Source of the DNA: Streptomyces sp. JHA26
GTDB lineage: Bacteria; Actinomycetota; Actinomycetes; Streptomycetales; Streptomycetaceae
DNA length: 64,000 bases
Reading direction: 5' to 3'
NCBI RefSeq assembly: GCF_002005565.1
Contig: NZ_BDJC01000001.1
Span: forward strand, 124,001-188,000
This document shows, one piece after another, positions 11,185 through 40,504 of this stretch. Every line of letters begins with the position of its first letter. Positions within the stretch are counted from its first letter, which is position 1. A model generated the notes under the pieces. It was not told the DNA's origin. It worked only from the letters and a program-made list of their open reading frames with translations, and ran no database searches. Made by a program: the position numbers and the translations under genes.

Positions 11185-11907
11185 TCAGGTCAGGGACTTC
11201 TGCGACGGGACCACGACTCCGTAGAGGTCCTGGACCGTGGCGAGAGCGGCCTCGTGGACCTGCTGTGCGGGAATGCCGTCCGGGTCGCCCTTCAGGGGCA
11301 GCGGCCGGGTCGCGGAGGCGTCCGCCACCACGGTCGGCTTGTTCCCGTTGAGGAAGGCGCCCTGGGTGGTGAACAGCGTGCACATGTTCGTCATGAAGCC
11401 CGCGATGATGACGTTCTCGCGGCCGGCCTTCTTCACCTGCGCGGCGAGGTCGGTGCCGTGGAAGCCGTTCGGGACGCTCTTCTCCACGACGGGCTCGCCC
11501 TTGACGGGCTTGAGCGCCGGGATGATCTGGCCCGCCTTCGACTTCAGGTCGTAGCCCTTGTCGACGATGTGGATGACCGGCGTGCCCGCCGCGCGGGCCC
11601 GCTTCAGGAGAGCCGCGGCGTTGTCCACCGCCGGCTTCCACCCGTCGAGTTCCATCACGCCCTCGGTGTAGGTGTTCTGGTAGTCGACGAGGATGAGCGT
11701 CGCGTCGGAGAGCGTGGCCGGGGTCTCGTCGAGATGGTTGAGCTCGCGCAGCGTCGTGGTGTCCTTCGCGACGTTCGCCGCGGTGGTGGCGGAGGCCGAC
11801 GGCTCGCCCTTGGGGGAGGCGGCCTCGGAGTCGCCGCCGCACGCGGTGGCGGTGAACGCGAGAACGACGGCGGCACCGAGCGCGACGGCCGGACGGCGCA
11901 GCTTCAT
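11185..11907 (-). CDS. Lipoprotein isochorismatase-family cysteine hydrolase
   Basis: The 240-residue protein is an isochorismatase-fold hydrolase carried behind a lipoprotein signal (MKLRRP, hydrophobic core, TATACGG with the lipidated Cys at about residue 23). The catalytic triad is visible: Asp in LILVDYQNTYT, Lys in EPVVEKSVPN and Cys in AGFMTNMCTLFT. It is about 70% alike to the preceding gene product over the whole catalytic domain, differing mainly by the export signal and a Ser/Ala-rich linker. Its ATG overlaps the stop of that gene (ATGA), so the two are translationally coupled. The substrate is unknown; an amide or imide is typical of the family. Confidence 0.85.
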   Translation of the reverse strand: MKLRRPAVALGAAVVLAFTATACGGDSEAASPKGEPSASATTAANVAKDTTTLRELNHLDETPATLSDATLILVDYQNTYTEGVMELDGWKPAVDNAAALLKRARAAGTPVIHIVDKGYDLKSKAGQIIPALKPVKGEPVVEKSVPNGFHGTDLAAQVKKAGRENVIIAGFMTNMCTLFTTQGAFLNGNKPTVVADASATRPLPLKGDPDGIPAQQVHEAALATVQDLYGVVVPSQKSLT

Positions 11908-12497
11908 CGGACGAGCTCCTTCTGCGAGGGGACGACGACGCCGTACAGGTCGGCGATGGTGGCGAGGGCGGCGTGGTGCACCTGGCGGGCGTCCACCTCG
12001 GTGCCCGCGACCGGCAGGGCGCGGGTGGCGCTGGCGTCGGCCACCACGGTGGGGCGGTTGCCGCGCAGGAAGGCGCCCTGGGCGGTGAAGGCCACGCACA
12101 TGTGCGTCATGAAGCCGGCGATGACGACGTCCTCGTTGCCCGCGGCGTCGACGTGCTCGGCGAGGTCCGTGTCCACGAAGGCGTTCGGCGCCTTCTTGAC
12201 GACGACGGGCTCGCCGTCGATCGGTGCGACGCTCGGGTGGATCTGCCCGATCTCGGCCCGGACGTCGTACGGGGTGCCCTCGCCGCCGTCGTTGACGACG
12301 TGGATGACCTTCGCGCCCTCCCGGCGGGCGCGGGCCAGCAGTTCGGCCGCGGCGTCCAGCGCCTCACGCCAGCCGTCCAGCTCCATGACGCCGGTCGTGT
12401 AGGTGTTCTGGTAGTCGACGAGGATCAGCGTGGACGCGGCGAGCTTCGCCGGGGTCTCGTCGAAGCCGTTGAGTTCGCGCAGCGTCGTTCTGGGCAT
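11904..12497 (-). CDS. Cytosolic isochorismatase-family cysteine hydrolase
   Basis: This 197-residue protein lacks any signal peptide and starts at MPRTTLRELNGFDETPAKL, a segment repeated almost word for word in its lipoprotein paralogue. The catalytic Asp, Lys and Cys are in LILVDYQNTY, EPVVVKKAPN and AGFMTHMCVAFT. It is the first gene of a two-gene operon and is divergent from a GlxA-like regulator 149 bases away, which probably controls it. Members of the fold hydrolyse isochorismate, nicotinamide, N-carbamoyl compounds or related amides; the active-site residues alone do not discriminate. The start is supported by the alignment with the paralogue. Confidence 0.88.
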   Translation of the reverse strand: MPRTTLRELNGFDETPAKLAASTLILVDYQNTYTTGVMELDGWREALDAAAELLARARREGAKVIHVVNDGGEGTPYDVRAEIGQIHPSVAPIDGEPVVVKKAPNAFVDTDLAEHVDAAGNEDVVIAGFMTHMCVAFTAQGAFLRGNRPTVVADASATRALPVAGTEVDARQVHHAALATIADLYGVVVPSQKELVR

Positions 12498-12581
12498 GGG
12501 GAACCACCTGAAGTCACGTGTAGGGGGAGGCAGTTCACCGGTGCGGTGACCTGCGCCTACGACGTTATGGCCACCCGCTGG

Positions 12582-12616
12582 TGTCGGCAATGTCGTCTAA
12601 CATGCAGAAACCGACA
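12582..12616. promoter_or_regulatory. Inverted repeat in the divergent hydrolase/regulator promoter
   Basis: TGTCGG at 12582-12587 and CCGACA at 12611-12616 form an inverted pair 23 bases apart, and a second TGTCG follows the first at a nine-base step. Both lie between the divergent starts at 12497 and 12647. Half-sites spaced this way suit a dimeric AraC-type protein such as the one encoded at 12647. Confidence 0.5.
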
Positions 12617-12646
12617 TGGCCGTTGCCGTCGAGCGTGGGGGGTTCC

Positions 12647-13648
12647 ATGAGCACCGTCGGACGACTGATCGTCATCGTCCTCTTCGAGGACGTCGACCTG
12701 CTCGACGTCACCGGACCGCCGGAGGTGTTCTCCCTCGCGCGCCGCGAGACGGACGAGGCGGCGGGCTACGACGTCGTCCTCGCCGCCGAGACCATGGCCC
12801 CGGTCACCACCGGCGCCGGGGTCCGGGTCCTGCCCGACGTCACCTTCGACGACCTGGCCGCGAGGAGCATCGACACCCTGATCGTGCCCGGCGCCGTCGA
12901 GGTGGACGACCGGCGCCGCGTGCACCCGCTCACCGACCCCGCCGTGGTGGAGCGGGTCCGGCAACTCGCCGCCCGCACCCGGCGGGTCACCTCCGTCTGC
13001 GTCGGGGCGCACATCCTCGCCGCCGCCGGACTCCTCGACGGCAAGCGCGCCACCACCCACTGGTCGACCGCGCGGCAGCTCGCCGCCGAGCACCCGGCCG
13101 TCGAGGTCGACGCCGACCCGATCTTCATCCGCGAGGGCGACGTGTGGACGGGCGCGGGGATCAGCGCCTGCCTCGACCTGTCCCTCGCGCTCATCGCCGA
13201 CGACCTCGGCGAGGACGTCGCGCTGCGCGTGGCCCGGCAGCTCGTGATGTACCTGAAACGGCCGAGCGGACAGAGCCAGTTCAGCGTCCCCTTGGAGCAG
13301 GTCTCCACGACCCGGCGCATCGAGGACCTGCGCCACCACATCATGCGCCACATCGCCGAACCCCTCACGGTCGCGGACCTCGCCGCGTGCGCCCACGTCA
13401 GCGACCGGCAGCTCACCCGCATCTTCAAGAACGAACTCGGCACGACCCCGCACGCCTACATCGAGTCGGCCCGCGTCGAGGTGGCGCGCCACCAGCTCGA
13501 ATCCACCGACGCCACCCTGGAACGGGTCGCCACCGCCTGCGGATTCGGCACCGTCGACACCCTGGTCAGGGCCTTCCGCCGCCGGCTCGACACGACACCG
13601 ACCGAGTACCGGCGCCGGTTCCGCACCGGACCGGCGCGGGCGCGCTGA
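12647..13648 (+). CDS. GlxA-like transcriptional regulator (DJ-1/PfpI + AraC HTH)
   Basis: The 333-residue protein has an N-terminal DJ-1/PfpI domain (about residues 5-180). Its nucleophile-elbow segment is VTSVCVGAHILAAAGLLDG, with the Cys retained. A C-terminal AraC-type double helix-turn-helix follows (about residues 225-325: LTVADLAACAHVSDRQLTRIFKNELG, then RVATACGFGTVDTLVRAFRR). Regulators of this type often sense metabolites and control divergent operons. Here the divergent target is the pair of isochorismatase-fold hydrolases. The ATG follows a GTGGGGGG ribosome site. Confidence 0.88.
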   Translation: MSTVGRLIVIVLFEDVDLLDVTGPPEVFSLARRETDEAAGYDVVLAAETMAPVTTGAGVRVLPDVTFDDLAARSIDTLIVPGAVEVDDRRRVHPLTDPAVVERVRQLAARTRRVTSVCVGAHILAAAGLLDGKRATTHWSTARQLAAEHPAVEVDADPIFIREGDVWTGAGISACLDLSLALIADDLGEDVALRVARQLVMYLKRPSGQSQFSVPLEQVSTTRRIEDLRHHIMRHIAEPLTVADLAACAHVSDRQLTRIFKNELGTTPHAYIESARVEVARHQLESTDATLERVATACGFGTVDTLVRAFRRRLDTTPTEYRRRFRTGPARAR

Positions 13649-14404: not shown

Positions 14405-15256
14405 TCACGTGGGGCGGCTCACCCCGTCGGCCTTCTCGAACGTGACCGGGGTCTCGAAGGCCGCCCGGCGGGTGGCGCGGCGCAGCGCCTTCAGGACCGG
14501 CGTGCCGAGCGCGAGGGTGAGCACGACCGTCATGGCGGCGCGGCCACCGTCCCAGCCGAGGGACGTGGCCAGGCAGTAGGCGGCGAAACGGGCCAGGTTG
14601 TCGAGGACCGGGGCGTCCGGGTCGAAGGCGATGTCCGAGGCCAGCGTGTTCATGAACGTCCAGCCGGCCAGGTTCATCACCGTGCCGTAGGCGAACGCGG
14701 CCAGGAAGCCGTAGGCGGCCAGCAGGAGCAGCTCCCCGCGGCCGCGCAGCCGGTCGGGGAAGGGCAGCAGGCCCGCGCCCATCGTGAACCAGCCCATCGA
14801 CAGCATCTGGAACGGCATCCACGGCCCCACCCCGCCCGTGAGCAGCGCGGACGCGAACATCGTGACCGAGCCGAGGACGAAGCCGAAGCCGGGGCCGAGG
14901 ACCCGGCCGCTGAGGACCATCAGGAAGAACATCGGCTCCAGACCGGCCGTCCCCGCGCCGATGGGGCGCAGCGCCGCCCCCGCCGCCGCCAGTACGCCGA
15001 GCATCGCCACGGCCTTGGGACCGAGCCCCGACTCCGAGATCGTCGCCGCCACCACCGCCACCAGCAGCACCAGCACGCCCGCGAACAGCCACGGGGCGTC
15101 CTGGGCGTGGGCGTTCAGCGAGGCGTCCGGCGGGGCGAGGAAGGGCCAGCCGAAGCCCGCCACGCCCACCGCACTGACCAGCACCAGGGCGGCGACGGAC
15201 CGGGGGCCCAGACGGACGGCACGGACCTGGCGCTGCGCAGGAGCACCGCCGCTCAT
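14405..15256 (-). CDS. ECF transporter S component (predicted cobalamin-specific)
   Basis: The 283-residue protein has about seven hydrophobic helices. Its middle section (LRPIGAGTAGLEPMFFLMVLSGRVLGPGFGFVLGSVTMFASALLTGGVGPWMPFQMLSMGWF) has the shape of ECF substrate-binding components. Cobalamin is the inferred substrate, because the operon is headed by a cobalamin riboswitch. The start ATG overlaps the stop of the ATPase gene (ATGA), making it the last gene of the five-gene unit. Its C-terminus (TFEKADGVSRPT) is short and polar. Confidence 0.8.
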   Translation of the reverse strand: MSGGAPAQRQVRAVRLGPRSVAALVLVSAVGVAGFGWPFLAPPDASLNAHAQDAPWLFAGVLVLLVAVVAATISESGLGPKAVAMLGVLAAAGAALRPIGAGTAGLEPMFFLMVLSGRVLGPGFGFVLGSVTMFASALLTGGVGPWMPFQMLSMGWFTMGAGLLPFPDRLRGRGELLLLAAYGFLAAFAYGTVMNLAGWTFMNTLASDIAFDPDAPVLDNLARFAAYCLATSLGWDGGRAAMTVVLTLALGTPVLKALRRATRRAAFETPVTFEKADGVSRPT

Positions 15257-16929
15257 GACAGCGCCTCCCGCACCTGCGCCACCGTCAGCCACTTCCGCGG
15301 CGCCAGCACCTTCGCGACCTGCGGGGCGAACGACGGCGACGCCACCACCACGTCCGCCGCCGGGCCGTCGGCGATCACCTCGCCCTCGGCGAGCAGGACC
15401 ACCCGGTCGGCCAGCTCGGCGGCGAGTTCCACGTCGTGCGTGGCCAGCACGATCGCGTGACCGTCGGCCGCCAGGGAGCGCAGGATGCCGGCCAGGCGGG
15501 CCTTCGCCGCGTAGTCCAGGCCGCGCGTCGGCTCGTCCAGGAGGAGGAGGGGAGGACGGGCGGTCAGGACGACGGCCAGCGCGAGGGTCAGGCGCTGGCC
15601 CTCCGAGAGGTCGCGGGGGTGCGTGCCGTCGGCGACGCCGGGGAGCAGCTCCGTCAGCAGGGCGCGGCAGGTGCCGGGCGCCGCGTCCGCGTCCCGGTCG
15701 GCGGCCGCGCACTCGGCGGCGACCGTGTCGGCGTACAGCAGGTCGCGCGGCTCCTGCGGGACCAGGCCGACCCGGCGCACCAGCTCGCGCGGCGCCGTGC
15801 GGTGCGGCACGGCGTCGCCGGCGCGGACCGAACCGGCGGACGGTTCGACGAGGCCGACCAGCGTGGAGAGGAGGGTGGACTTCCCGGCGCCGTTGCGGCC
15901 CATGAGGGCGACCGTCTCGCCGGGGGAGACGGTGAGGCCGACGTCGCGCAGCGCCTGGACGCGGTCGCGCCGGACGGCGAGGGAACGGACCTCGGCGGCG
16001 TACGGGGAGGGGGCGGCGTCCGGGGCCTTCCTGCGGCGGCGCCAGCGGGAGGCGGGTGCGGGACGGGGCGCGGGGAGCGCGGGGGCCGAGGGGGCGCACT
16101 CCGCAGGGCGCCGGTCGGCGAGCCGCTCCCGCAGCGGGGCCGCGCGGCGGCGGGCGTCCCGGATCGTCAGCGGCAGCGGGGACCAGCCCGCCAGCCGGCC
16201 CAGGTCCACCACCGGCGGGTACACCGGGGACACGGCCATCACCTCCGCCGGGGGCCCGATGACCGGTGCCGCGCCCGGGGACGGGAGCAGGACGACCTGG
16301 TCGGCGTACTGGATGACGCGCTCCAGCCGGTGCTCGGCCATCAGGACCGTCGTCCCGAGGTCGTGGACCAGGCGCTGGAGGACCGCCAGGACCTCTTCCG
16401 CGGCGGCCGGGTCCAGGGCGGAGGTCGGCTCGTCCAGGACCAGGACGTCCGGGTGCGGGGTGAGCACCGAGCCGATGGCGACGCGCTGCTGCTGACCGCC
16501 GGAGAGCGTGGCGATGGGACGGGACCGCAGGTCGGACAGGCCCAGCAGGTCGAGGGTCTCCTCGACGCGGCGGCGCATCACGTCCGGGGCGAGGCCCAGG
16601 GACTCCATGCCGTAGGCGAGTTCGTCCTCGACGGTGTCCGTCACGAAGTGGGACAGCGGATCCTGGCCGACCGTGCCGACCACGTCGGCGAGCTCGCGCG
16701 GCTTGTGGGTGCGGGTGTCGCGGCCGGCCACGGTGACCCGGCCGCTCAGGGTGCCGCCGGTGAAGTGCGGCACGAGGCCGCCGACCGCGCCGAGCACGGT
16801 CGACTTGCCGACGCCCGACGGCCCGGCCAGCAGGACGAGTTCGCCCTCGGGGACCTCGAAGTCCACGCCGCGGACGGTGGGTTCCGCCGCGCCGTCGTAC
16901 GTGACCGACACGTCCTCGAAGCGGATCAC
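15253..16929 (-). CDS. ECF transporter ATPase, two ABC domains in one chain
   Basis: This 558-residue protein fuses both ATPases of an ECF energising module. Domain 1 (about residues 1-245) has Walker A GPSGVGKST, signature LSGGQQQR and Walker B VLVLDEPTSALD. Domain 2 (about residues 320-555) has Walker A GRNGAGKST, a signature read as LSEGQRLT and Walker B LLLLDEPTRGLD, then the H-loop ATHD. A disordered Pro/Ala/Arg linker of about 50 residues joins them. The second signature departs slightly from LSGGQ. The GTG start has AAGGAG five bases upstream and overlaps the stop of the T-component gene (GTGA). Confidence 0.9.
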   Translation of the reverse strand: MIRFEDVSVTYDGAAEPTVRGVDFEVPEGELVLLAGPSGVGKSTVLGAVGGLVPHFTGGTLSGRVTVAGRDTRTHKPRELADVVGTVGQDPLSHFVTDTVEDELAYGMESLGLAPDVMRRRVEETLDLLGLSDLRSRPIATLSGGQQQRVAIGSVLTPHPDVLVLDEPTSALDPAAAEEVLAVLQRLVHDLGTTVLMAEHRLERVIQYADQVVLLPSPGAAPVIGPPAEVMAVSPVYPPVVDLGRLAGWSPLPLTIRDARRRAAPLRERLADRRPAECAPSAPALPAPRPAPASRWRRRRKAPDAAPSPYAAEVRSLAVRRDRVQALRDVGLTVSPGETVALMGRNGAGKSTLLSTLVGLVEPSAGSVRAGDAVPHRTAPRELVRRVGLVPQEPRDLLYADTVAAECAAADRDADAAPGTCRALLTELLPGVADGTHPRDLSEGQRLTLALAVVLTARPPLLLLDEPTRGLDYAAKARLAGILRSLAADGHAIVLATHDVELAAELADRVVLLAEGEVIADGPAADVVVASPSFAPQVAKVLAPRKWLTVAQVREALS

Positions 16930-18234
16930 GACGGCTCCTTCACGGCGGTGGGGACGGGGGCGGGGGCGACGAACGCCGGGAGCAGGCCGACGAGCACGGC
17001 CGCCGCCGGCCACAGCGGGAGCGACGGCGCGACCAGCGGGACCACGCCCGGGTGCAGCGCCGCCGGGTCGCGGGCGGCGGCCACGGACAGCGAGGCCGCG
17101 ACGGCCACGCCGGAGGCGGTGACCAGCCAGGCGCGGGCGTCCCAGCGGTCGGGGCGGTAGCGGGTGCGCGGGGTCCGCCGGCCGCCGAGCCACAACCCCC
17201 CGAGCGCGGCGGCCAGTCCGGCGAGGAGGACGGGGACGGCCGTACGTGCCGCCGGCGGCGGTCAGCACGCCGTACGTCCCCGCGCAGACGCCGAGCAGGC
17301 CGCCGAGGGTGAGGGCGGCGGTGGTACGGCGTACGGCGGCGGGCACCCGGGCGGTGCGGCCGTAGCCGCGGGCGTCCATCGCGGCGGCGAGGGCGACGGA
17401 GCGCTCCAGGGCGCCCTCCAGCACCGGCAGCCCGACCTGGAGCAGGCCGCGTACGCCCGTGTCGGGGCGGCCTCGCAGGCGGCGGGCGGCGCGCAGGCGG
17501 TGGACGTCGGCGACGAGGTTCGGGGCGAAGGTGAGGGCGACGACGACGGCCACGCCCATCTCGTACAGGGCGCCCGGGAGGGACTTGAGGAGGCGGGAGG
17601 GGTTGGCCAGGGCGTTCGCGGCACCGACGCAGACGAGGAGGGCGGCCAGCTTCATCGCGTCGTACAGCGCGAAGGCGAGGCCCTCGGCGGTGACGCGGCC
17701 GCCGAGACGGATGCCCTGCGCCCAGTGGGGGAGGGGAACCTCGGGGAGGGTGACGAGGGTGTGGGTGCCGGGGATGGGGGAGCCGAGGATCGTGGTGAAG
17801 GCGAGGCGGATGAGGAGGACGGCGAGGGCGAGTTTGACGAAGGCGCCGTAGGAGCGGGACCAGGGGGCGTGGGGGCGGCGGGCGGTGACGACGTAGGCGG
17901 AGACGGTGACGAGGAGGGCGAGGAGGAGCGGGTTGGTGGTGCGGGTGGCGGCGGTGCCGAGGGCCAGGGCCCAGAGCCACCAGGCGCCGGGGTGGAGCTG
18001 GGCGGAACGGTGGCGGCGGGCGGGCGCCGGTCGTGCGGTGGCGGTGCGCCGGCGGGGGCGGGGGGCGGGGGCGTTCGCCCGCACCGAGGGGGCGTCTTCC
18101 CCGGAGGGGACACCCCCGGCGCCCACCCTCCCCCGCTCTCGGCCTCGCTCGAGCGGGGGGACCCCCGTCGCCCCACGGCTGCCCGCGGGCCGGGCGGGGT
18201 GCTCGGCCGCGTCGGTCGGGTCAGGAGTCGGCAT
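16926..18234 (-). pseudogene. ECF transporter T component (CbiQ-like), frameshifted as sequenced
   Basis: The first part (about residues 1-335 from the ATG at 18234) is a CbiQ-like transmembrane protein with two conserved cytosolic motifs: AARRLRGRPD, the Ala-Arg-Gly type coupling segment, and AAAMDARGYGRTAR. At about 17245 the frame breaks after GTYGVLTAAGGTYG. The remaining 105 residues, including two more membrane helices ending PVPTAVKEPS, are read one base over and stop at 16926, where the stop overlaps the ATPase start. The total length is one base more than a multiple of three, so a single extra base restores the gene. This may be a sequencing error or a real mutation. Confidence 0.75.
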
Positions 18235-18883
18235 TCCTGCGCCGCCTCGACTGCCAGACCGCCGCCGCGGCCAGGGCCGCGACGATGGCCGTGCCGGTGA
18301 CGAGGCCGGTCGACGGGCCGCCGTCGCCGTCCTCGTCCTGCGCGGGCTCCTGCGCGGGGGCCGCGCTCGTCGTCGGGTCCTGCTTCTGCGACACCTGCTC
18401 CCCGCACCCCGTCCGCGGGTAGCCCGCGATGGCGCACAGCAGTGCGTTGGTGTCGTAGCGCAGGGGACCGGCGACCGCGGCCAGGGCGTCGGCCGTCGTC
18501 GCGTCGGAGGCGACGCGGGCGCAGGCCGTACGTCCCGCCGGCGGCGTCTCGCCGGACGGGGCGTCGGCCGCCGTACCGAAGTCCAGGACGAGCGCCACCC
18601 GCTTCTCGCCGTCCCGCGCGGGCGTCTTCGCGCAGATCGTCGCGAAGTCGGCCGTGCCGCGCGGCTGTGCCGCGTCGCCGGAGTCCTCGCTCACCGAGAA
18701 GCGGAAGCCCTGGACGTCGCCGTCGGAGGGACGGGCCATGGAGGGGCCCTGGGTGGCGTACGTCCAGCGTTCGCCGTCGCGGTCCCAGAAGGACCAGTAG
18801 CGGTAGCCGGTGGCCTGCGCCGGGCCCGCGCCCGTGACGATCACGAGCACGGCCGTCAGTAGAAGGGTGAGGCGGCGTATCAC
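18221..18883 (-). CDS. Secreted membrane-anchored protein (SCO2322 family) of the B12 operon
   Basis: The 220-residue product has a signal peptide (RRLTLLLTAVLVIVTGAGPAQA). An extracytoplasmic domain of about 150 residues contains four Cys, and a Pro/Glu/Asp-rich linker leads to a C-terminal membrane helix followed by RRRR. The start of the mature domain (YRYWSFWDRDGERWTYATQGPS, then DGDVQGFRF) has the aromatic and DGD pattern seen in the small beta domain (DUF4430) of transcobalamins; that similarity is by eye. The GTG start overlaps the stop of the upstream alpha-toroid gene, and its stop overlaps the T-component start. A role in binding cobalamin outside the membrane is inference. Confidence 0.75.
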   Translation of the reverse strand: MIRRLTLLLTAVLVIVTGAGPAQATGYRYWSFWDRDGERWTYATQGPSMARPSDGDVQGFRFSVSEDSGDAAQPRGTADFATICAKTPARDGEKRVALVLDFGTAADAPSGETPPAGRTACARVASDATTADALAAVAGPLRYDTNALLCAIAGYPRTGCGEQVSQKQDPTTSAAPAQEPAQDEDGDGGPSTGLVTGTAIVAALAAAAVWQSRRRRNADS

Positions 18884-20139
18884 GGCTGCTGCTTCCGGTT
18901 GCGGCCGCTGAGGACGAAGCCGATGCCGATGCCGAAGACGAGGCAGACGCCGACGAACCACCAGACGCCGAAGGGGGAGTCGTCCTTCTCGTCCTTCTTC
19001 TCGTCCTGCGCCTCGTCCTTCTTCCCGTCCGAGCCGGTGGCGCGGTCCTTGACGCCCTGCGGCGTCGGCCCCGTGGCGTTGAGCCGCTCGACCAGGTCGG
19101 TGCCGCCGAAGGCGCGGGGGTCGGTGCCCGTGGCGTGGGCGGCGAAGATCAGCTGGGCGTAGGCGGCCGGCCCGCTCTGCGCGGCCCAGGTCGCGGCGTT
19201 CTTCTCCAGCCAGGCCAGCGGCTTCGCGGCGCTGCCGGCCCCGCCCTGCGCGGCGAGCGCGACGACGGCGTCGGCGGTGTTGCCGTAGTCGGGCTGGGCC
19301 TCGGCACCGGCGAGGGCGGACGTCAGGTGGCCGTCCTTCGCGACCGCCCGCGCGAGGTGGGCGGCGCCGTTCGCGGCGGCCTGCTCCCGCGTGGGCCGGT
19401 CCCCGCCGGCGCAGCCGGCGTCGCCGCCCGCCGCCTTGCCCGGCTCGGCGACCAGGCCCTTGCCGAGCGCGCCGAGGACGCCGGCGGCGGTCGCGTCGTC
19501 GTTGGCGAGGAGCTTGCCGTCCTTGTCGGGCTGGAAGGCGAAGGCGCCCGCGCCCTTGCTCTCCGAGCAGGGCAGGGCGAAGGTCAGCAGGGCGTCGTAG
19601 GGCGACTTGCCGTCCTTCGTGACGGTCTCCGGCTTCGTGCCGGTGGCGGTGAGGGCGCCGATGACCACGGAGGTGGAGTTGGCGTCGCTGGGGCCGCCGG
19701 GGGTGTAGCCCCAGCCGCCGTCCTTGTTCTGCACGGACTTCAGCCAGCCGAGGGCGTCCTCGACGGCGTCGCCGTGCCCGCCGACGGCCCACAGGGCCTG
19801 GACGGCGGCGGCCGTGCTGTTGGTGTCGACCATGGTCTTGGCGTCGCAGGGCTTGGCGGTGTCGGCCCGGTAGGGCGCGAAGGCGCCGTTGTCGCACTGC
19901 TGCCCGGTGAGCCACCGCACGGCCGTCGCCGACGGGACGACGCCCACGGTGTCCTGGGCGAGCATCGCGAGCGACTGGCGCCACACGCCGTCGTACTGCG
20001 GGTCGGCGGTGCCGTACAGCCCGGCGGGCGTGGACGCGGAGGCGGACGGTGACGGGTCGGCGGCGACCGCGGGCGCGGCGGCGGCGCCCAGCACGGCTAT
20101 GGCGGCGAGAGCCGCGGCGCTGCGACGGCGGACGTTCAT
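18880..20139 (-). CDS. Secreted, anchored prenyltransferase-repeat (transcobalamin-like) protein
   Basis: The 419-residue protein has a signal peptide (RRRSAAALAAIAVLGAAAAPAVAA). An alpha/alpha-toroid of about 300 residues follows, with prenyltransferase-type repeats such as LGWLKSVQNKDGGWGYTPGGPSDANSTS and VRWLTGQQCDNGAFAPY. The tail has a Lys/Asp/Glu-rich linker, a final membrane helix (FGVWWFVGVCLVFGIGIGFVLS) and a basic end. The same toroid fold forms the large domain of animal transcobalamin and intrinsic factor. Placement directly after a cobalamin riboswitch, and with ECF transporter genes, points to extracellular cobalamin capture rather than prenyl transfer. The ATG is about 70 bases below the end of the aptamer region. 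Confidence 0.8.
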   Translation of the reverse strand: MNVRRRSAAALAAIAVLGAAAAPAVAADPSPSASASTPAGLYGTADPQYDGVWRQSLAMLAQDTVGVVPSATAVRWLTGQQCDNGAFAPYRADTAKPCDAKTMVDTNSTAAAVQALWAVGGHGDAVEDALGWLKSVQNKDGGWGYTPGGPSDANSTSVVIGALTATGTKPETVTKDGKSPYDALLTFALPCSESKGAGAFAFQPDKDGKLLANDDATAAGVLGALGKGLVAEPGKAAGGDAGCAGGDRPTREQAAANGAAHLARAVAKDGHLTSALAGAEAQPDYGNTADAVVALAAQGGAGSAAKPLAWLEKNAATWAAQSGPAAYAQLIFAAHATGTDPRAFGGTDLVERLNATGPTPQGVKDRATGSDGKKDEAQDEKKDEKDDSPFGVWWFVGVCLVFGIGIGFVLSGRNRKQQP

Positions 20140-20224
20140 GATCGGCGGGTGCCTTTCCCTGCGCGGGGCCGGACAGCACGGGGCACCCCCGGCGGCTCGG
20201 CCCCGTATGCCTCGACGGTGCCCG

Positions 20225-20385
20225 TGCACGGCGGGCGCCGGGCACGTGAGCCGGTCACGGTTCCGTCCGGGGCGATCCGGCTCACCGCCCGCGGACCTGC
20301 TCGGGGGACGGCTCACGGTTGCGGGTCAGCGCCGGAATTGCACCGGCTTCCCCCCGTACGGGCGTGATACGACGCCGCTACTTTA
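20225..20385 (-). promoter_or_regulatory. Cobalamin riboswitch
   Basis: On the minus strand the leader reads GCCGGTGCAATTCCGGC, then GCTGACCCGCAACCGTGA. This is the strongly conserved core of cobalamin riboswitches, at about 20313-20350. It is followed by GAGCCGGATCGCC, which resembles the B12-box arm. Downstream hairpins, including GTGCCCG/CGGGCAC near 20219-20246 and GGGGCCG/CGGCCCC near 20160-20200, could mask the ribosome site of the 20139 start. Ligand binding should reduce expression of the five-gene operon. The outer boundaries are approximate. Confidence 0.9.
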
Positions 20386-20415: not shown

Positions 20416-21165
20416 CTAACGGCACTCCCCGGGCGTCCCCGCCTCCGTCAGGTCGATCAGGCGGCACGCCGTGTCGATGTCCGCCTTCACCTCGGCGATG
20501 GAGGCACGGCCCGAGAGCCAGGTGATCAGGGTGGAGTGCCAGGTGTGTTCGACGACGCGGACCGCGGAGAGCTGTTCGGGGGTCGGATCGGCCAGGCCGC
20601 CCATCGCGTCCAGGATGATCGCCGTCGTCTGGCGGGAGACCTGGTCGACCTCCGGGGAGACGCTGCGGTCGGCGAAGGTGAGGGCACGGGCCATCGCCTC
20701 GGCCAGCTGCGGTTCGCGCTGCAGGGCGCGGAAGGCCCGCATCAGGGTCTGGGCCACCCGCTCCGCCGCCGTCTCGCCCGTCGGCGGCTGTCTGCGCAGC
20801 GTCGCGTGCAGGCGCTCCAGCTGGTCCTGCATGGTCGCCACCAGCAGGTGGACCTTGGAGGGGAAGTAGCGGTACAGCGTGCCGAGGGCGACCTGCGAGG
20901 ACTCCGCGACCTCGCGCATCTGCACGGCGTCGAAACCGCCCCGGCCGGCCAGCCGGGCGCTCGCCTGGAGGATGCGGCGGCGACGCGCCTCCTGCCGTTC
21001 CGTCAGGGGCGGGGAGGACGCGGCGCGGTGCACGGGGGCGGCCGTCGTGCCCGCCACCGGGTGGTCCACCTCGGTCACCTTCTTCCCCTTCCTCCCCCCG
21101 CCCGGCCCGGCGGGCGCACCGGCGTGACCGCCGTCGTGGCGTGAATCACCTGATCCACTCGTCAC
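20416..21165 (-). CDS. TetR-family regulator, KstR-like
   Basis: The 249-residue protein has an unusually long disordered N-terminus (about 50 residues, Gly/Ala/Lys rich) and then a TetR DNA-binding domain (RRRRILQASARLAGRGGFDAVQMREVAESSQVALGTLYRYFPSKVHLLVA, about residues 60-110). The recognition helix and the following DRS-VSPEVDQV and W-S-LITWLSGRAS segments closely follow mycobacterial KstR, the regulator of sterol and lipid catabolism. A perfect match to the KstR consensus lies in the promoter region between this gene and the divergent glycosyltransferase operon, so autoregulation is likely. The GTG start is preceded by AGGGG; a later start would only remove disordered residues. Confidence 0.85.
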   Translation of the reverse strand: MTSGSGDSRHDGGHAGAPAGPGGGRKGKKVTEVDHPVAGTTAAPVHRAASSPPLTERQEARRRRILQASARLAGRGGFDAVQMREVAESSQVALGTLYRYFPSKVHLLVATMQDQLERLHATLRRQPPTGETAAERVAQTLMRAFRALQREPQLAEAMARALTFADRSVSPEVDQVSRQTTAIILDAMGGLADPTPEQLSAVRVVEHTWHSTLITWLSGRASIAEVKADIDTACRLIDLTEAGTPGECR

Positions 21166-39190: not shown

Positions 39191-40171
39191 ATGACTGCAC
39201 GCGGCTGGGCCCTGTTCTCCCTGATGGGAGTGGTCTGGGGCATCCCCTATCTGATGATCAAGGTGGCGGTGGAGGACCTCTCCCCGTCCGTGGTCGTGTT
39301 CACCCGGTGCGCGCTCGGCGCCGCCCTCCTGCTCCCCTTCGCCCTCCGCCAGGGAGGCCTCGCCCGGACGGTCCGGGCGCACTGGGCACCGATGCTGGCC
39401 TTCGCCGTCATCGAGATCATCGGCCCCTGGTGGACCCTCACCGACGCCGAACGCCACCTCTCCAGCTCCACCGCCGGCCTGCTCATCACGGGCGTCCCCA
39501 TCGTCGCCGTCCTCCTGGCCCGCTTCTTCGGCGCCGAGGAACGGGTCGGCGCCCGCCGGATCACCGGACTCGGCGTCGGCCTCGGGGGCGTCGCCGTCCT
39601 CACCGTGCCGCACCTCACCGGCGGCGACGCCCGCTCGCTCGCCGAGGTGCTGGTGACGGTCGTCGGCTACGCCACCGCGCCCCTCGTAGCCGCCCGCCAC
39701 CTCAAGGACGTCCCCACCCTCCAGCTCATCACCCCCTGCCTCACCCTGGCCGCCGTCGTCTACGCCCCCGCCGCCTTCCTGACCCGGCCCGCCGCCCTCC
39801 CCCCGGGCGAGGTCCTGGCGGCCCTGGCCGGCCTCGGCGTCGTCTGCACCGCGGTCGCCTTCGTGGCCTTCCTGGAGCTGATCAGGGAGGTCGGACCGAC
39901 CCGGGCCGGCGTCATCACCTACGTCAACCCGGCGGTCGCCGTCGCCGCGGGCGCCCTCTTCCTGGACGAGGACCTGACCCTCGGCATCGGCGTCGCCTTC
40001 ACCCTGATCCTGGCCGGCTCGGTCCTCGCGACGGCCGCCGCCGGTCCGCGGCCGGGGGCCCGCCGGGTACCATGGTCGGCACGGCAGACGAGCCGGGCGG
40101 GCGGCCGCGTGGAGTCCCTTGCGGGACTTCCCGAGGAACGTCCGGGCTCCACAGGGCAGGGTGATGGCTAA
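39191..40171 (+). CDS. DMT (EamA) family permease; C-terminus runs into rnpB
   Basis: The 326-residue frame has ten predicted membrane helices in two EamA repeats (GVVWGIPYLMIKVAVEDLSP and the second repeat ending NPAVAVAAGALFLDEDLTLGIG). It probably exports an amino acid or metabolite. The last helix ends near residue 285. About 30 further residues come from sequence that is also the 5' end of rnpB on the same strand (40083-40171), so the tail is unlikely to be conserved and the ORF simply lacks an earlier stop. It is probably co-transcribed with the AraC regulator. Confidence 0.85.
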   Translation: MTARGWALFSLMGVVWGIPYLMIKVAVEDLSPSVVVFTRCALGAALLLPFALRQGGLARTVRAHWAPMLAFAVIEIIGPWWTLTDAERHLSSSTAGLLITGVPIVAVLLARFFGAEERVGARRITGLGVGLGGVAVLTVPHLTGGDARSLAEVLVTVVGYATAPLVAARHLKDVPTLQLITPCLTLAAVVYAPAAFLTRPAALPPGEVLAALAGLGVVCTAVAFVAFLELIREVGPTRAGVITYVNPAVAVAAGALFLDEDLTLGIGVAFTLILAGSVLATAAAGPRPGARRVPWSARQTSRAGGRVESLAGLPEERPGSTGQGDG

Positions 40172-40504
40172 CGGCCACCCGGGGTGACCCGCGGGACAGT
40201 GCCACAGAAAGCAGACCGCCGGAGGCTTCGGCCCCCGGTAAGGGTGAAACGGTGGTGTAAGAGACCACCAGTGCCCAGGGCGACCTGGGCAGCTAGGTAA
40301 ACCCCACCCGGAGCAAGGTCAAGAGGAGACGCCTCCTCGCACGAGGGGGCGGCTCTGCGCGGACGTTCGAGGGCTGCCCGCCCGAGTCCGCGGGTAGACC
40401 GCTGGAGGCCGGTGGCAACGCCGGTCCTAGATGGATGGCCGTCGCCGGCGGGCCCGCGAGGACCCGCCGGAACAGAACCCGGCGTACAGCCCGACTCGTC
40501 TGCC
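40083..40504 (+). ncRNA. rnpB: RNase P RNA (type A)
   Basis: The conserved RNase P RNA blocks are present in order: GAGGAACGTCCGGGCTCC, then CAGGGTGATGGCTAACGGCC, then GACAGTGCCACAGAAA, and near the 3' end CCTAGATGGATGGCCGTCGCC with AACAGAACCCGGCGTACA. The ends pair as GGCAGACGAG with CTCGTCTGCC (helix P1), which sets the boundaries at about 40083 and 40504. It is the catalytic RNA that matures tRNA 5' ends. TACCAT at 40068-40073 is a possible -10 element inside the end of the permease gene. A terminator follows directly. Confidence 0.95.

What the first reader, a model, noticed from the sequence alone, without database searches (positions are those of the whole stretch)
14405..20385. Riboswitch-controlled cobalamin capture and ECF uptake operon with transcobalamin-like proteins
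A cobalamin riboswitch heads five coupled genes: a secreted anchored alpha-toroid protein, a second secreted anchored protein with a DUF4430-like start, then ECF T, double ATPase and S components. Animal transcobalamins combine an alpha-toroid with a small beta domain; here the same two parts may be split into separate anchored proteins that hand B12 to the S component. That would be a Gram-positive counterpart of cobalamin-binding lipoproteins.
Basis: partly seen in the sequence, partly recalled or inferred. Interest (0 to 1): 0.85.

Follow-up and report, generated by a model that had tools for sequence, protein, structure and literature searches.

The report
Permuted two-piece bacterial B12 capture proteins
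A soil bacterium of the Streptomyces group carries a probable vitamin B12 uptake operon whose two cell-surface proteins look like the two halves of the human B12 carrier transcobalamin, made as separate proteins and each with its sequence order rotated, which would explain why a standard domain library misses the smaller one.

Summary
In detail: a cobalamin riboswitch (32.7 bits, cut-off 31.5) heads five overlapping genes: secreted anchored alpha-toroid protein (P1, SCO2321_fam), second secreted anchored protein (P2, SCO2322_fam), ECF T, double ATPase, S. In this assembly T has a one-base frameshift.
The transcobalamin idea is partly supported and not new in outline: Burroughs et al. 2007 proposed bacterial toroid plus beta-grasp (SLBB) B12 scavengers in CbiO/CbiQ operons.
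What appears new: both proteins are circular permutants. Against unpermuted actinobacterial relatives each aligns in two swapped blocks. Rotating P1 at residue ~244 raises the profile score from 210 to 304; rotating P2 at ~89-93 raises it from 73 to 95. Column shuffles never reached this (0 of 60; 0 of 100). P2's four invariant cysteines all align once rotated. Of 127 loci typed for both genes, 100 (79 of them Streptomyces) were permuted/permuted, 26 unpermuted/unpermuted, 1 mixed.
P2 reaches transcobalamin only through intermediate profiles; direct comparisons are not significant. Cobalamin binding is inferred, not shown.

The parts
20380..20385 (-). TAAAGT, a -10-like hexamer just upstream of the aptamer
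   Evidence: sequence. The pattern GGGTARRGT lies within 60 nt upstream of the aptamer core in 29 of 77 relatives. Function not tested.
20273..20378 (-). cobalamin riboswitch aptamer RF00174
   Evidence: core motif upstream of P1 in 77 of 80 Streptomyces loci, up to 8 substitutions allowed
18880..20139 (-). P1: secreted, anchored alpha/alpha-toroid protein (SCO2321 family), circularly permuted
   Evidence: (629 bits, cut-off 300)
19432..20031 (-). P1 residues 37-236, equivalent to the C-terminal part of unpermuted toroids
19066..19392 (-). P1 residues 250-358, equivalent to the N-terminal part of unpermuted toroids
18913..18966 (-). P1 C-terminal transmembrane helix, residues 392-409
   Evidence: AlphaFold secondary structure; low pLDDT there
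18221..18883 (-). P2: secreted, anchored SLBB/DUF4430-type protein (SCO2322 family), circularly permuted
   Evidence: (235.9 bits, cut-off 85)
18620..18811 (-). P2 residues 25-88 (strands S3-S5), equivalent to the C-terminal half of unpermuted SLBB
18392..18610 (-). P2 residues 92-164 (strands S1, S2, helix, cysteine hairpin), equivalent to the N-terminal half of unpermuted SLBB
18236..18319 (-). P2 C-terminal GPS-CTERM sorting/anchor segment, residues 189-216
16926..18234 (-). ECF T component (CbiQ family), frameshifted near 17238 in this assembly
15253..16932 (-). double ECF ATPase (two ABC domains in one chain)
14405..15256 (-). ECF S component, probably for cobalamin/corrinoid
   Evidence: specificity inferred from context only

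Best explanation
This is a cobalamin (corrinoid) capture and uptake operon. When B12 is scarce the riboswitch would allow expression (inferred). P1 (toroid) and P2 (SLBB-type beta-grasp) are exported, fixed to the membrane by C-terminal segments, and together hold one corrinoid between them, as the two domains of transcobalamin do (inferred). They hand it to the S component, which the T/double-ATPase module empties into the cell (inferred). Shown here: the operon, the riboswitch match, its conservation, the pairing of both proteins with the same ECF genes, and the fact that P1 and P2 are each circular permutants of unpermuted toroid and SLBB proteins found next to the same ECF genes in other Actinomycetota. 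The permutation does not change the expected fold. It moves the chain ends, and so the membrane tethers, and probably hides the SLBB domain from Pfam.
For: Riboswitch at the head, core motif in 77 of 80 relatives, and Rfam cobalamin hits in 5 of 9 distant loci with a toroid gene. One of five RF00174 matches in the genome; three of the other four lie beside genes that I read as cbiM cobalt uptake, cobD/cobQ biosynthesis and a ribonucleotide reductase (labels read by eye from translations). P1 permutation: two swapped blocks (res 38-245 with profile 132-341; 247-355 with 28-129), doubled 303.8, native 210.3, rotated 304.0 over 288 columns with 34% identity, 0 of 60 shuffles as high. P2 permutation: native 73.2 and 31.9 in two swapped blocks, rotated 94.6 over 122 columns, best cut at residue 89-93 (steps of 4), 0 of 100 shuffles as high. 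P2 cysteines 84, 121, 150, 160, invariant in the 76 sequences of A3, each align with a cysteine of the unpermuted protein. A search with an unpermuted SLBB alone hits only the first half of P2 here, query 70-127, E 3.5e-4, and the same half in 5 of 8 other same-genus genomes. HMM halves made from P2 find the unpermuted L253 in N-then-C order (37 and 13 bits), and halves made from unpermuted SLBB find five permuted loci in C-then-N order (L237, L257, L258, L259, L263; N half only 12-22 bits). Chain to transcobalamin: TC C-domain to DUF4430 set E 1.5e-6, Prob 90; DUF4430 set to actinobacterial SLBB E 1.5e-5, Prob 80; SLBB to rotated P2 E 3.7e-16, Prob 98.7. These hhalign E-values are for one pair, not a database. 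AlphaFold P1 core is a confident toroid; human transcobalamin 2bb5 is among the Foldseek hits, rank 50, E 1.7e-3.
Against: No binding data. Squalene cyclases and prenyltransferases match the P1 fold better than transcobalamin, so the toroid alone says nothing about B12. Direct profile links to transcobalamin are not significant: P1 Prob 0.3, P2 Prob 0.5, actinobacterial SLBB Prob 0.4, unpermuted toroid Prob 5.7 (the TC profile has only three close sequences). P2 against the DUF4430 set is weak (Prob 25) and rotation does not improve it. No transcobalamin was listed in PDB sequence searches with the profiles of P1, P2, unpermuted SLBB, unpermuted toroid or DUF4430. 0 of 27 unpermuted SLBB members match any Pfam family at E<=0.01. 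The P2 model is poor (mean pLDDT 68) and found no fold match. The riboswitch is barely over threshold and only 3 of 9 same-genus loci, this one included, pass it; the folding energy of the leader is not unusual (z -0.76). The S profile matches no relevant solved structure. Streptomyces as a genus makes B12 (recalled), so uptake need not be essential. T is frameshifted here.
Confidence: 0.75

Rival explanations
1. The proteins and ECF module take up another ligand that is useful when B12 is low (for example cobalt complexes, cobinamide or another cofactor), and the toroid and SLBB have drifted from B12 binding.
For: No binding residues could be tested; the toroid fold is shared with many enzymes and binders; S has no characterised close relative in the PDB sequences. 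Burroughs et al. suggest other metabolites for archaeal members.
Against: The cobalamin riboswitch and the toroid/SLBB/ECF set are conserved together. Cobinamide uptake would still be corrinoid uptake.
Confidence: 0.15
2. The swapped order comes from shifting within internal toroid repeats and chance similarity in a small beta domain, not from true circular permutation.
For: The toroid has internal repeats and hhalign does give weaker off-register matches (third and fourth pieces 71.9 and 63.0). The second half of P2 scores only about 30 alone. In 4 of the 21 loci L015-L035 the order of toroid blocks is unclear because repeats match.
Against: The rotated alignment of P1 gains 94 score units over native with a single broad optimum and no shuffle near it. 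The P2 rotation curve peaks at one cut, no shuffle reaches it, four cysteines fit, and both topologies are seen among related genomes.
Confidence: 0.04
3. P1 is a terpene-cyclase-like or prenyltransferase-like enzyme and P2 an accessory protein; the ECF genes are neighbours by chance.
For: Pfam prenyltransferase/squalene cyclase matches just under cut-off; cyclases top the structure lists.
Against: Extracellular and anchored; overlapping genes; the same pairing in many families; cobalamin riboswitch.
Confidence: 0.03

Closest known systems
Animal transcobalamin II / intrinsic factor / haptocorrin (PDB 2bb5, 2pmv, 4kki)
   Same: alpha/alpha-toroid plus beta-grasp SLBB/DUF4430-type domain; proposed sandwiching of one corrinoid
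   Different: two polypeptides instead of one; both domains circularly permuted; membrane-anchored; no significant direct sequence match
Bacterial SLBB (transcobalamin-type) B12 scavenging proteins of Burroughs et al. 2007 (PMC1796856)
   Same: secreted toroid and SLBB, operons with CbiO/CbiQ, proposed B12 scavenging (passages)
   Different: 'permut' and 'Streptomyces' have 0 occurrences in that main text, and no permuted order is mentioned in the passages I saw
NCBIfam NF053823 SCO2321_fam and NF040672 SCO2322_fam
   Same: P1 and P2 are members over the curated cut-offs
   Different: the names returned carry no stated function or link to transcobalamin
ECF-CbrT vitamin B12 transporter of Lactobacillus delbrueckii (PMC5997447)
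   Same: ECF-type importer for B12
   Different: no relevant sequence match of this S component to any solved structure; the cluster described for L. delbrueckii is nrdJ-cbrS-cbrT-pduO, without toroid or SLBB genes (passage)
Bacteroidetes BtuG/BtuH surface lipoproteins (recalled)
   Same: capture of B12 outside the membrane before an importer
   Different: unrelated folds and outer-membrane setting (recalled, not compared here)

Membership tests
Cobalamin riboswitch RF00174 | covariance-model score over the gathering score | tested here: met
   32.7 against 31.5 bits; only 3 of 9 same-genus loci, this one included, pass
SCO2321_fam / SCO2322_fam (NCBIfam) | score over curated cut-off | tested here: met
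   629.1 against 300 and 235.9 against 85
PF14478 DUF4430 | score over Pfam gathering score | tested here: not met
   0 Pfam families for P2 at E<=1; PF14478 not among the 15 families matched by any of 76 members at E<=10; no match in genome G000 at E<=0.001
SLBB transcobalamin-type beta-grasp superfamily | homology to the domain core in any order | tested here: met
   rotated profile alignment to unpermuted actinobacterial SLBB, E 3.7e-16, 122 columns, which in turn aligns with the DUF4430 profile at E 1.5e-5, Prob 80. P2 directly against the DUF4430 profile is weak, Prob 25
SLBB transcobalamin-type beta-grasp superfamily | strand order S1-S2-helix-hairpin-S3-S4-S5 | tested here: not met
   order is S3-S4-S5-S1-S2-helix-hairpin: a permuted relative, not a classical member
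Transcobalamin family | toroid and beta domain in one chain, toroid first | tested here: not met
   two genes, both permuted
Transcobalamin family | significant direct sequence similarity | tested here: inconclusive
   no significant direct match, narrow three-sequence TC profile; Foldseek lists 2bb5 at rank 50 for P1
Transcobalamin family | binds cobalamin | not testable with these tools
   needs a binding assay
ECF transporter | T, two ATPase domains, S component | tested here: met
   CbiQ 29.9 over 25; ABC_tran twice; S 29.9 just under 30.7; S of this group is 37-41% identical to those of three loci with unpermuted toroid genes
ECF transporter | all components intact in this genome | tested here: not met
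   T has a one-base frameshift in this assembly

The most novel reading that the evidence does not exclude
In a large group of Actinomycetes the transcobalamin clamp has been split into two membrane-tethered proteins whose toroid and beta-grasp halves were both circularly permuted. The two permutations are inherited together because the new chain ends place both tethers so that the closed clamp presents its corrinoid to the ECF S component. Permuted toroid with unpermuted SLBB (G194, and by collinear alignment G108) would be an independent half-way state.
Probability: 0.35. Interest if true: 0.75.

Novelty: new variant of a known kind. Interest (0 to 1): 0.62.

Why it matters
It gives two families named only after Streptomyces coelicolor locus tags, and common in the family of this genome, a testable role and fold. 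It would explain why Pfam misses the second one. It offers a natural case of linked circular permutation in two partner proteins, and a route to a two-component transcobalamin-like B12 binder in well-studied laboratory bacteria.

Tried and rejected
Plain Pfam and PDB sequence searches with P2 gave nothing useful; the PDB rows for P2 alone (mostly GFP, E>=0.04) look like chance. Foldseek and VIA-align with the P2 model gave no fold match: the model is weak, and a sequential aligner would not show a permuted domain, so this is neither for nor against. PDB sequence searches with the P1, unpermuted SLBB, unpermuted toroid and DUF4430 profiles listed no transcobalamin. VIA-align rows for P1 (top 50 entries shown) did not include transcobalamin. 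I considered that the two permutations arose from one duplication of a fused gene; a simple rotation of a fused toroid-SLBB chain does not give the observed order, so I dropped it (reasoning only). I considered that the permutation serves to add a membrane anchor; C-terminal hydrophobic segments occur with both topologies and vary, so this is not supported as a simple rule. Trees do not show one clean event. The S component tree needs 5 label changes for the permuted group, the rotated toroid tree 4 with at least 2 forced, the rotated SLBB tree 2 (quick method). So SLBB permutation may be single; toroid permutation happened more than once, or was lost or exchanged. L197 was typed 'perm' by the script because it carries two tandem SLBB domains in N-C N-C order; I read it as unpermuted and it is not among the 127. 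A hairpin that could compete with the aptamer (GTGAGCCGG/CCGGCTCAC or near) was found in 44 of 77 leaders, too few to build on. Covariation of the riboswitch was not computed. The S. lividans reannotation (PMC8079986, 12 of 17 passages including its Table 3) lists two cobalamin riboswitches, at cbiM and cobD, and none at this operon.

Literature, all open-licence PMC text: 'transcobalamin-like'+ECF+bacteria+cobalamin 0 papers; DUF4430 6 papers; SCO2321-SCO2325 1 paper, unrelated by its title; transcobalamin/ECF/cobalamin/'bacterial homolog', 3 of 4 terms, 11 papers; 'circular permutation'+transcobalamin 2 papers; five terms on intrinsic factor, Streptomyces and riboswitch, 4 of 5, 0 papers; 14 papers; 2; 2; 278 papers, 20 listed. 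No title or abstract start listed mentions these permutations. Passages were seen of PMC4350170, PMC1949818, PMC5997447, PMC2667541, PMC1796856 (passages, abstract, first part of section 7, one reviewer report) and PMC8079986; no paper was read whole.


Full report
WHAT IS THERE. The window is part of a 7.34-Mb genome in 169 contigs; its nearest named relatives in the scan are Streptomyces. On the minus strand an Rfam cobalamin aptamer (20378-20273, 32.7 bits, cut-off 31.5) is followed by five genes with overlapping ends: P1 20139-18880, P2 18883-18221, T 18234 to ~16926, double ATPase 16932-15253, S 15256-14405. NCBIfam puts P1 in SCO2321_fam and P2 in SCO2322_fam with a GPS-CTERM sorting domain. 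The T gene carries one extra base near 17238 relative to the three relatives shown; in 73 of 74 relatives with both parts they lie in one reading frame. This is either an assembly error or a lesion of this strain.

CONSERVATION. Within the fetched flanks P1 was found in 80, P2 in 79, T in 76, ATPase in 72 and S in 63 of 80; some loci end at contig ends. The aptamer core is present upstream of P1 in 77 of 80 (up to 8 substitutions), and the same loose pattern occurs 79 times in 1.19 Mb of these loci on both strands, so almost only there. At Rfam's own threshold 3 of 9 same-genus loci pass, this one included. In the family of this genome 131 of 150 genomes have a P1 match at E<=1e-10, not all full length. 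In a class-wide draw 94 of 296 genomes match at E<=1e-8. The first look of these searches scores only a few candidates per genome, so misses are possible.

DISTANT RELATIVES. Searching 296 Actinomycetota genomes with P1 gave 64 with matches at E<=0.001, this genome included. Of 11 distant loci looked at more widely, 8 have T and ATPase relatives and 6 also an S relative by single-sequence search; a separate small SLBB protein next to the toroid was read in four of them (L038, L041, L042, L043) and a fused one in L045. Five of nine such loci have a cobalamin riboswitch at the gathering score. In the 21 loci L015-L035 the match to P1 comes in two blocks in swapped order in 16, in one collinear block in 1 (L018, genome G108), and in no clear order in 4 (L028, L029, L033, L035).

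P1 IS CIRCULARLY PERMUTED. With 68 sequences (A2) against 18 unpermuted toroids (A5), hhalign aligns P1 residues 38-245 with profile columns 132-341 (score 210.3) and residues 247-355 with columns 28-129 (101.7); weaker off-register pieces follow (71.9, 63.0), as expected of a repeat fold. A doubled profile aligns in one piece (303.8). Rotating the start in steps of 9 residues gives one broad peak at residue 244 (304.0, 288 columns, 34% identity) against 210 in native order. Shuffling the columns of the moved part never reached the observed score (0 of 60; maximum 218.9). The AlphaFold model has most of the core above pLDDT 90, with dips near residues 191-200, 231-250 and 271-280.

P2 IS CIRCULARLY PERMUTED. 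With 76 sequences (A3) against 30 unpermuted SLBB proteins, native order gives two swapped blocks (3-65 with 80-142, score 73.2, Prob 97.6; 67-132 with 11-70, score 31.9, Prob 59.7; numbered from residue 25). Rotated, one alignment of 122 columns scores 94.6. In steps of 4 residues the score is highest with the cut at 89-93; 0 of 100 column shuffles of the moved half reach it, and that half alone scores 30.0 against a shuffled maximum of 17.9. The invariant cysteines 84, 121, 150 and 160 each face a cysteine in that alignment. The order of predicted strands and helices fits S3-S4-S5-S1-S2-helix-hairpin, in a model of modest confidence. A plain search with one unpermuted SLBB finds the first half of P2 in this genome and in 5 of the 8 other same-genus genomes drawn, E 2.7e-5 to 7.5e-4; two had no match and one matched elsewhere. 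Half profiles from unpermuted SLBB also match five permuted loci in C-then-N order, the N half weakly (12-22 bits).

BOTH TOGETHER. They are not a random sample and many are related. In 127 loci both genes could be typed: 79 of 79 Streptomyces permuted/permuted; of 48 others 26 unpermuted/unpermuted, 21 permuted/permuted, 1 permuted toroid with unpermuted SLBB (L199, genome G194). In 30 loci only one gene could be typed (one of them, L197, mistyped because of tandem domains); the remaining 11 gave nothing or repeated a sequence already counted. G108 also has a toroid collinear with P1 beside an unpermuted SLBB. Trees: label changes needed for the permuted group are 5 on the S tree of 54 rows, 2 of them forced, 4 on the rotated toroid tree of 55 rows, 2 forced, and 2 on the rotated SLBB tree of 67 rows, quick method. 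So the SLBB permutation may be a single event with one doubtful reversal (L253, long branch), while the toroid permutation in G194 is most simply separate from that in Streptomyces.

LINK TO TRANSCOBALAMIN. It is indirect. [quoted passage not shown]). That set aligns with the unpermuted actinobacterial SLBB (E 1.5e-5, Prob 80, 77 columns), and that with rotated P2 (E 3.7e-16, Prob 98.7). These are pairwise E-values. P2 directly against the DUF4430 set gives only Prob 25, with or without rotation. Direct comparisons of P1, P2 or the unpermuted SLBB with transcobalamin are not significant; the toroid of transcobalamin against unpermuted toroids gives E 0.0067, Prob 5.7, over 136 columns that cross the junction broken in P1, which if real means transcobalamin has the unpermuted order. 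Structure search lists human transcobalamin at rank 50 of the 50 rows shown for P1, below squalene and drimenyl cyclases.

FUNCTION. A cobalamin capture and ECF uptake operon is the most likely reading, from the riboswitch, the conserved pairing, and the published proposal for relatives (PMC1796856, section 7 part 1). The genome has four further RF00174 matches; by eye, three stand beside cbiM-type cobalt uptake, cobD/cobQ and a ribonucleotide reductase, and I assigned no gene to the fourth. Binding, clamp formation, delivery to S and the effect of the permutation on tethering are inferences.

NOVELTY. The broad idea dates from 2007. The permuted topology of both proteins, its joint inheritance and its occurrence in the SCO2321/SCO2322 families were in none of the listings or passages that I saw, all in open-licence PMC only.

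Noticed in passing
window 17236-17240: One extra base in the ECF T gene relative to close relatives shifts the frame; the first part of T and the ATPase then lie in one 993-aa reading frame. Assembly error or strain lesion.
   Followed up: partly
window 40089-40502 (+): Bacterial RNase P class A RNA, 274.7 bits.
   Followed up: no
window 20416-21165 (-): A TetR-type regulator (by eye; KstR-like from memory) ends 37 nt before the aptamer on the same strand, so the operon promoter must be very close to or inside its end.
   Followed up: no
window 12581-13648 (+) and 11904-12590 (-): By eye an AraC/GlxA-type regulator with DJ-1-like domain facing an isochorismatase-like hydrolase.
   Followed up: no
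L199 (G194) and L190 (G108): Permuted toroid beside an unpermuted SLBB in a family one of whose other members (L192) has an unpermuted toroid: probably an independent permutation at about the same place.
   Followed up: partly
L253 and L266 (same class, family f78): Loci with unpermuted toroids whose SLBB is recognised by the Streptomyces-derived half profiles and not by the unpermuted ones; possible return to the old order.
   Followed up: partly
L197, 5454-8282 (+): A toroid part followed by two tandem SLBB domains in one reading frame.
   Followed up: no
L200, G171:C1:3652397-3659127: A same-genus genome with SLBB and PF14478 hits far from its permuted pair, near a second toroid hit at 3657418-3657975: perhaps a second, unpermuted system.
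   Followed up: no
L004 (G000:C4:37306-37438): Cobalamin riboswitch beside what reads by eye as a ribonucleotide reductase gene.
   Followed up: no
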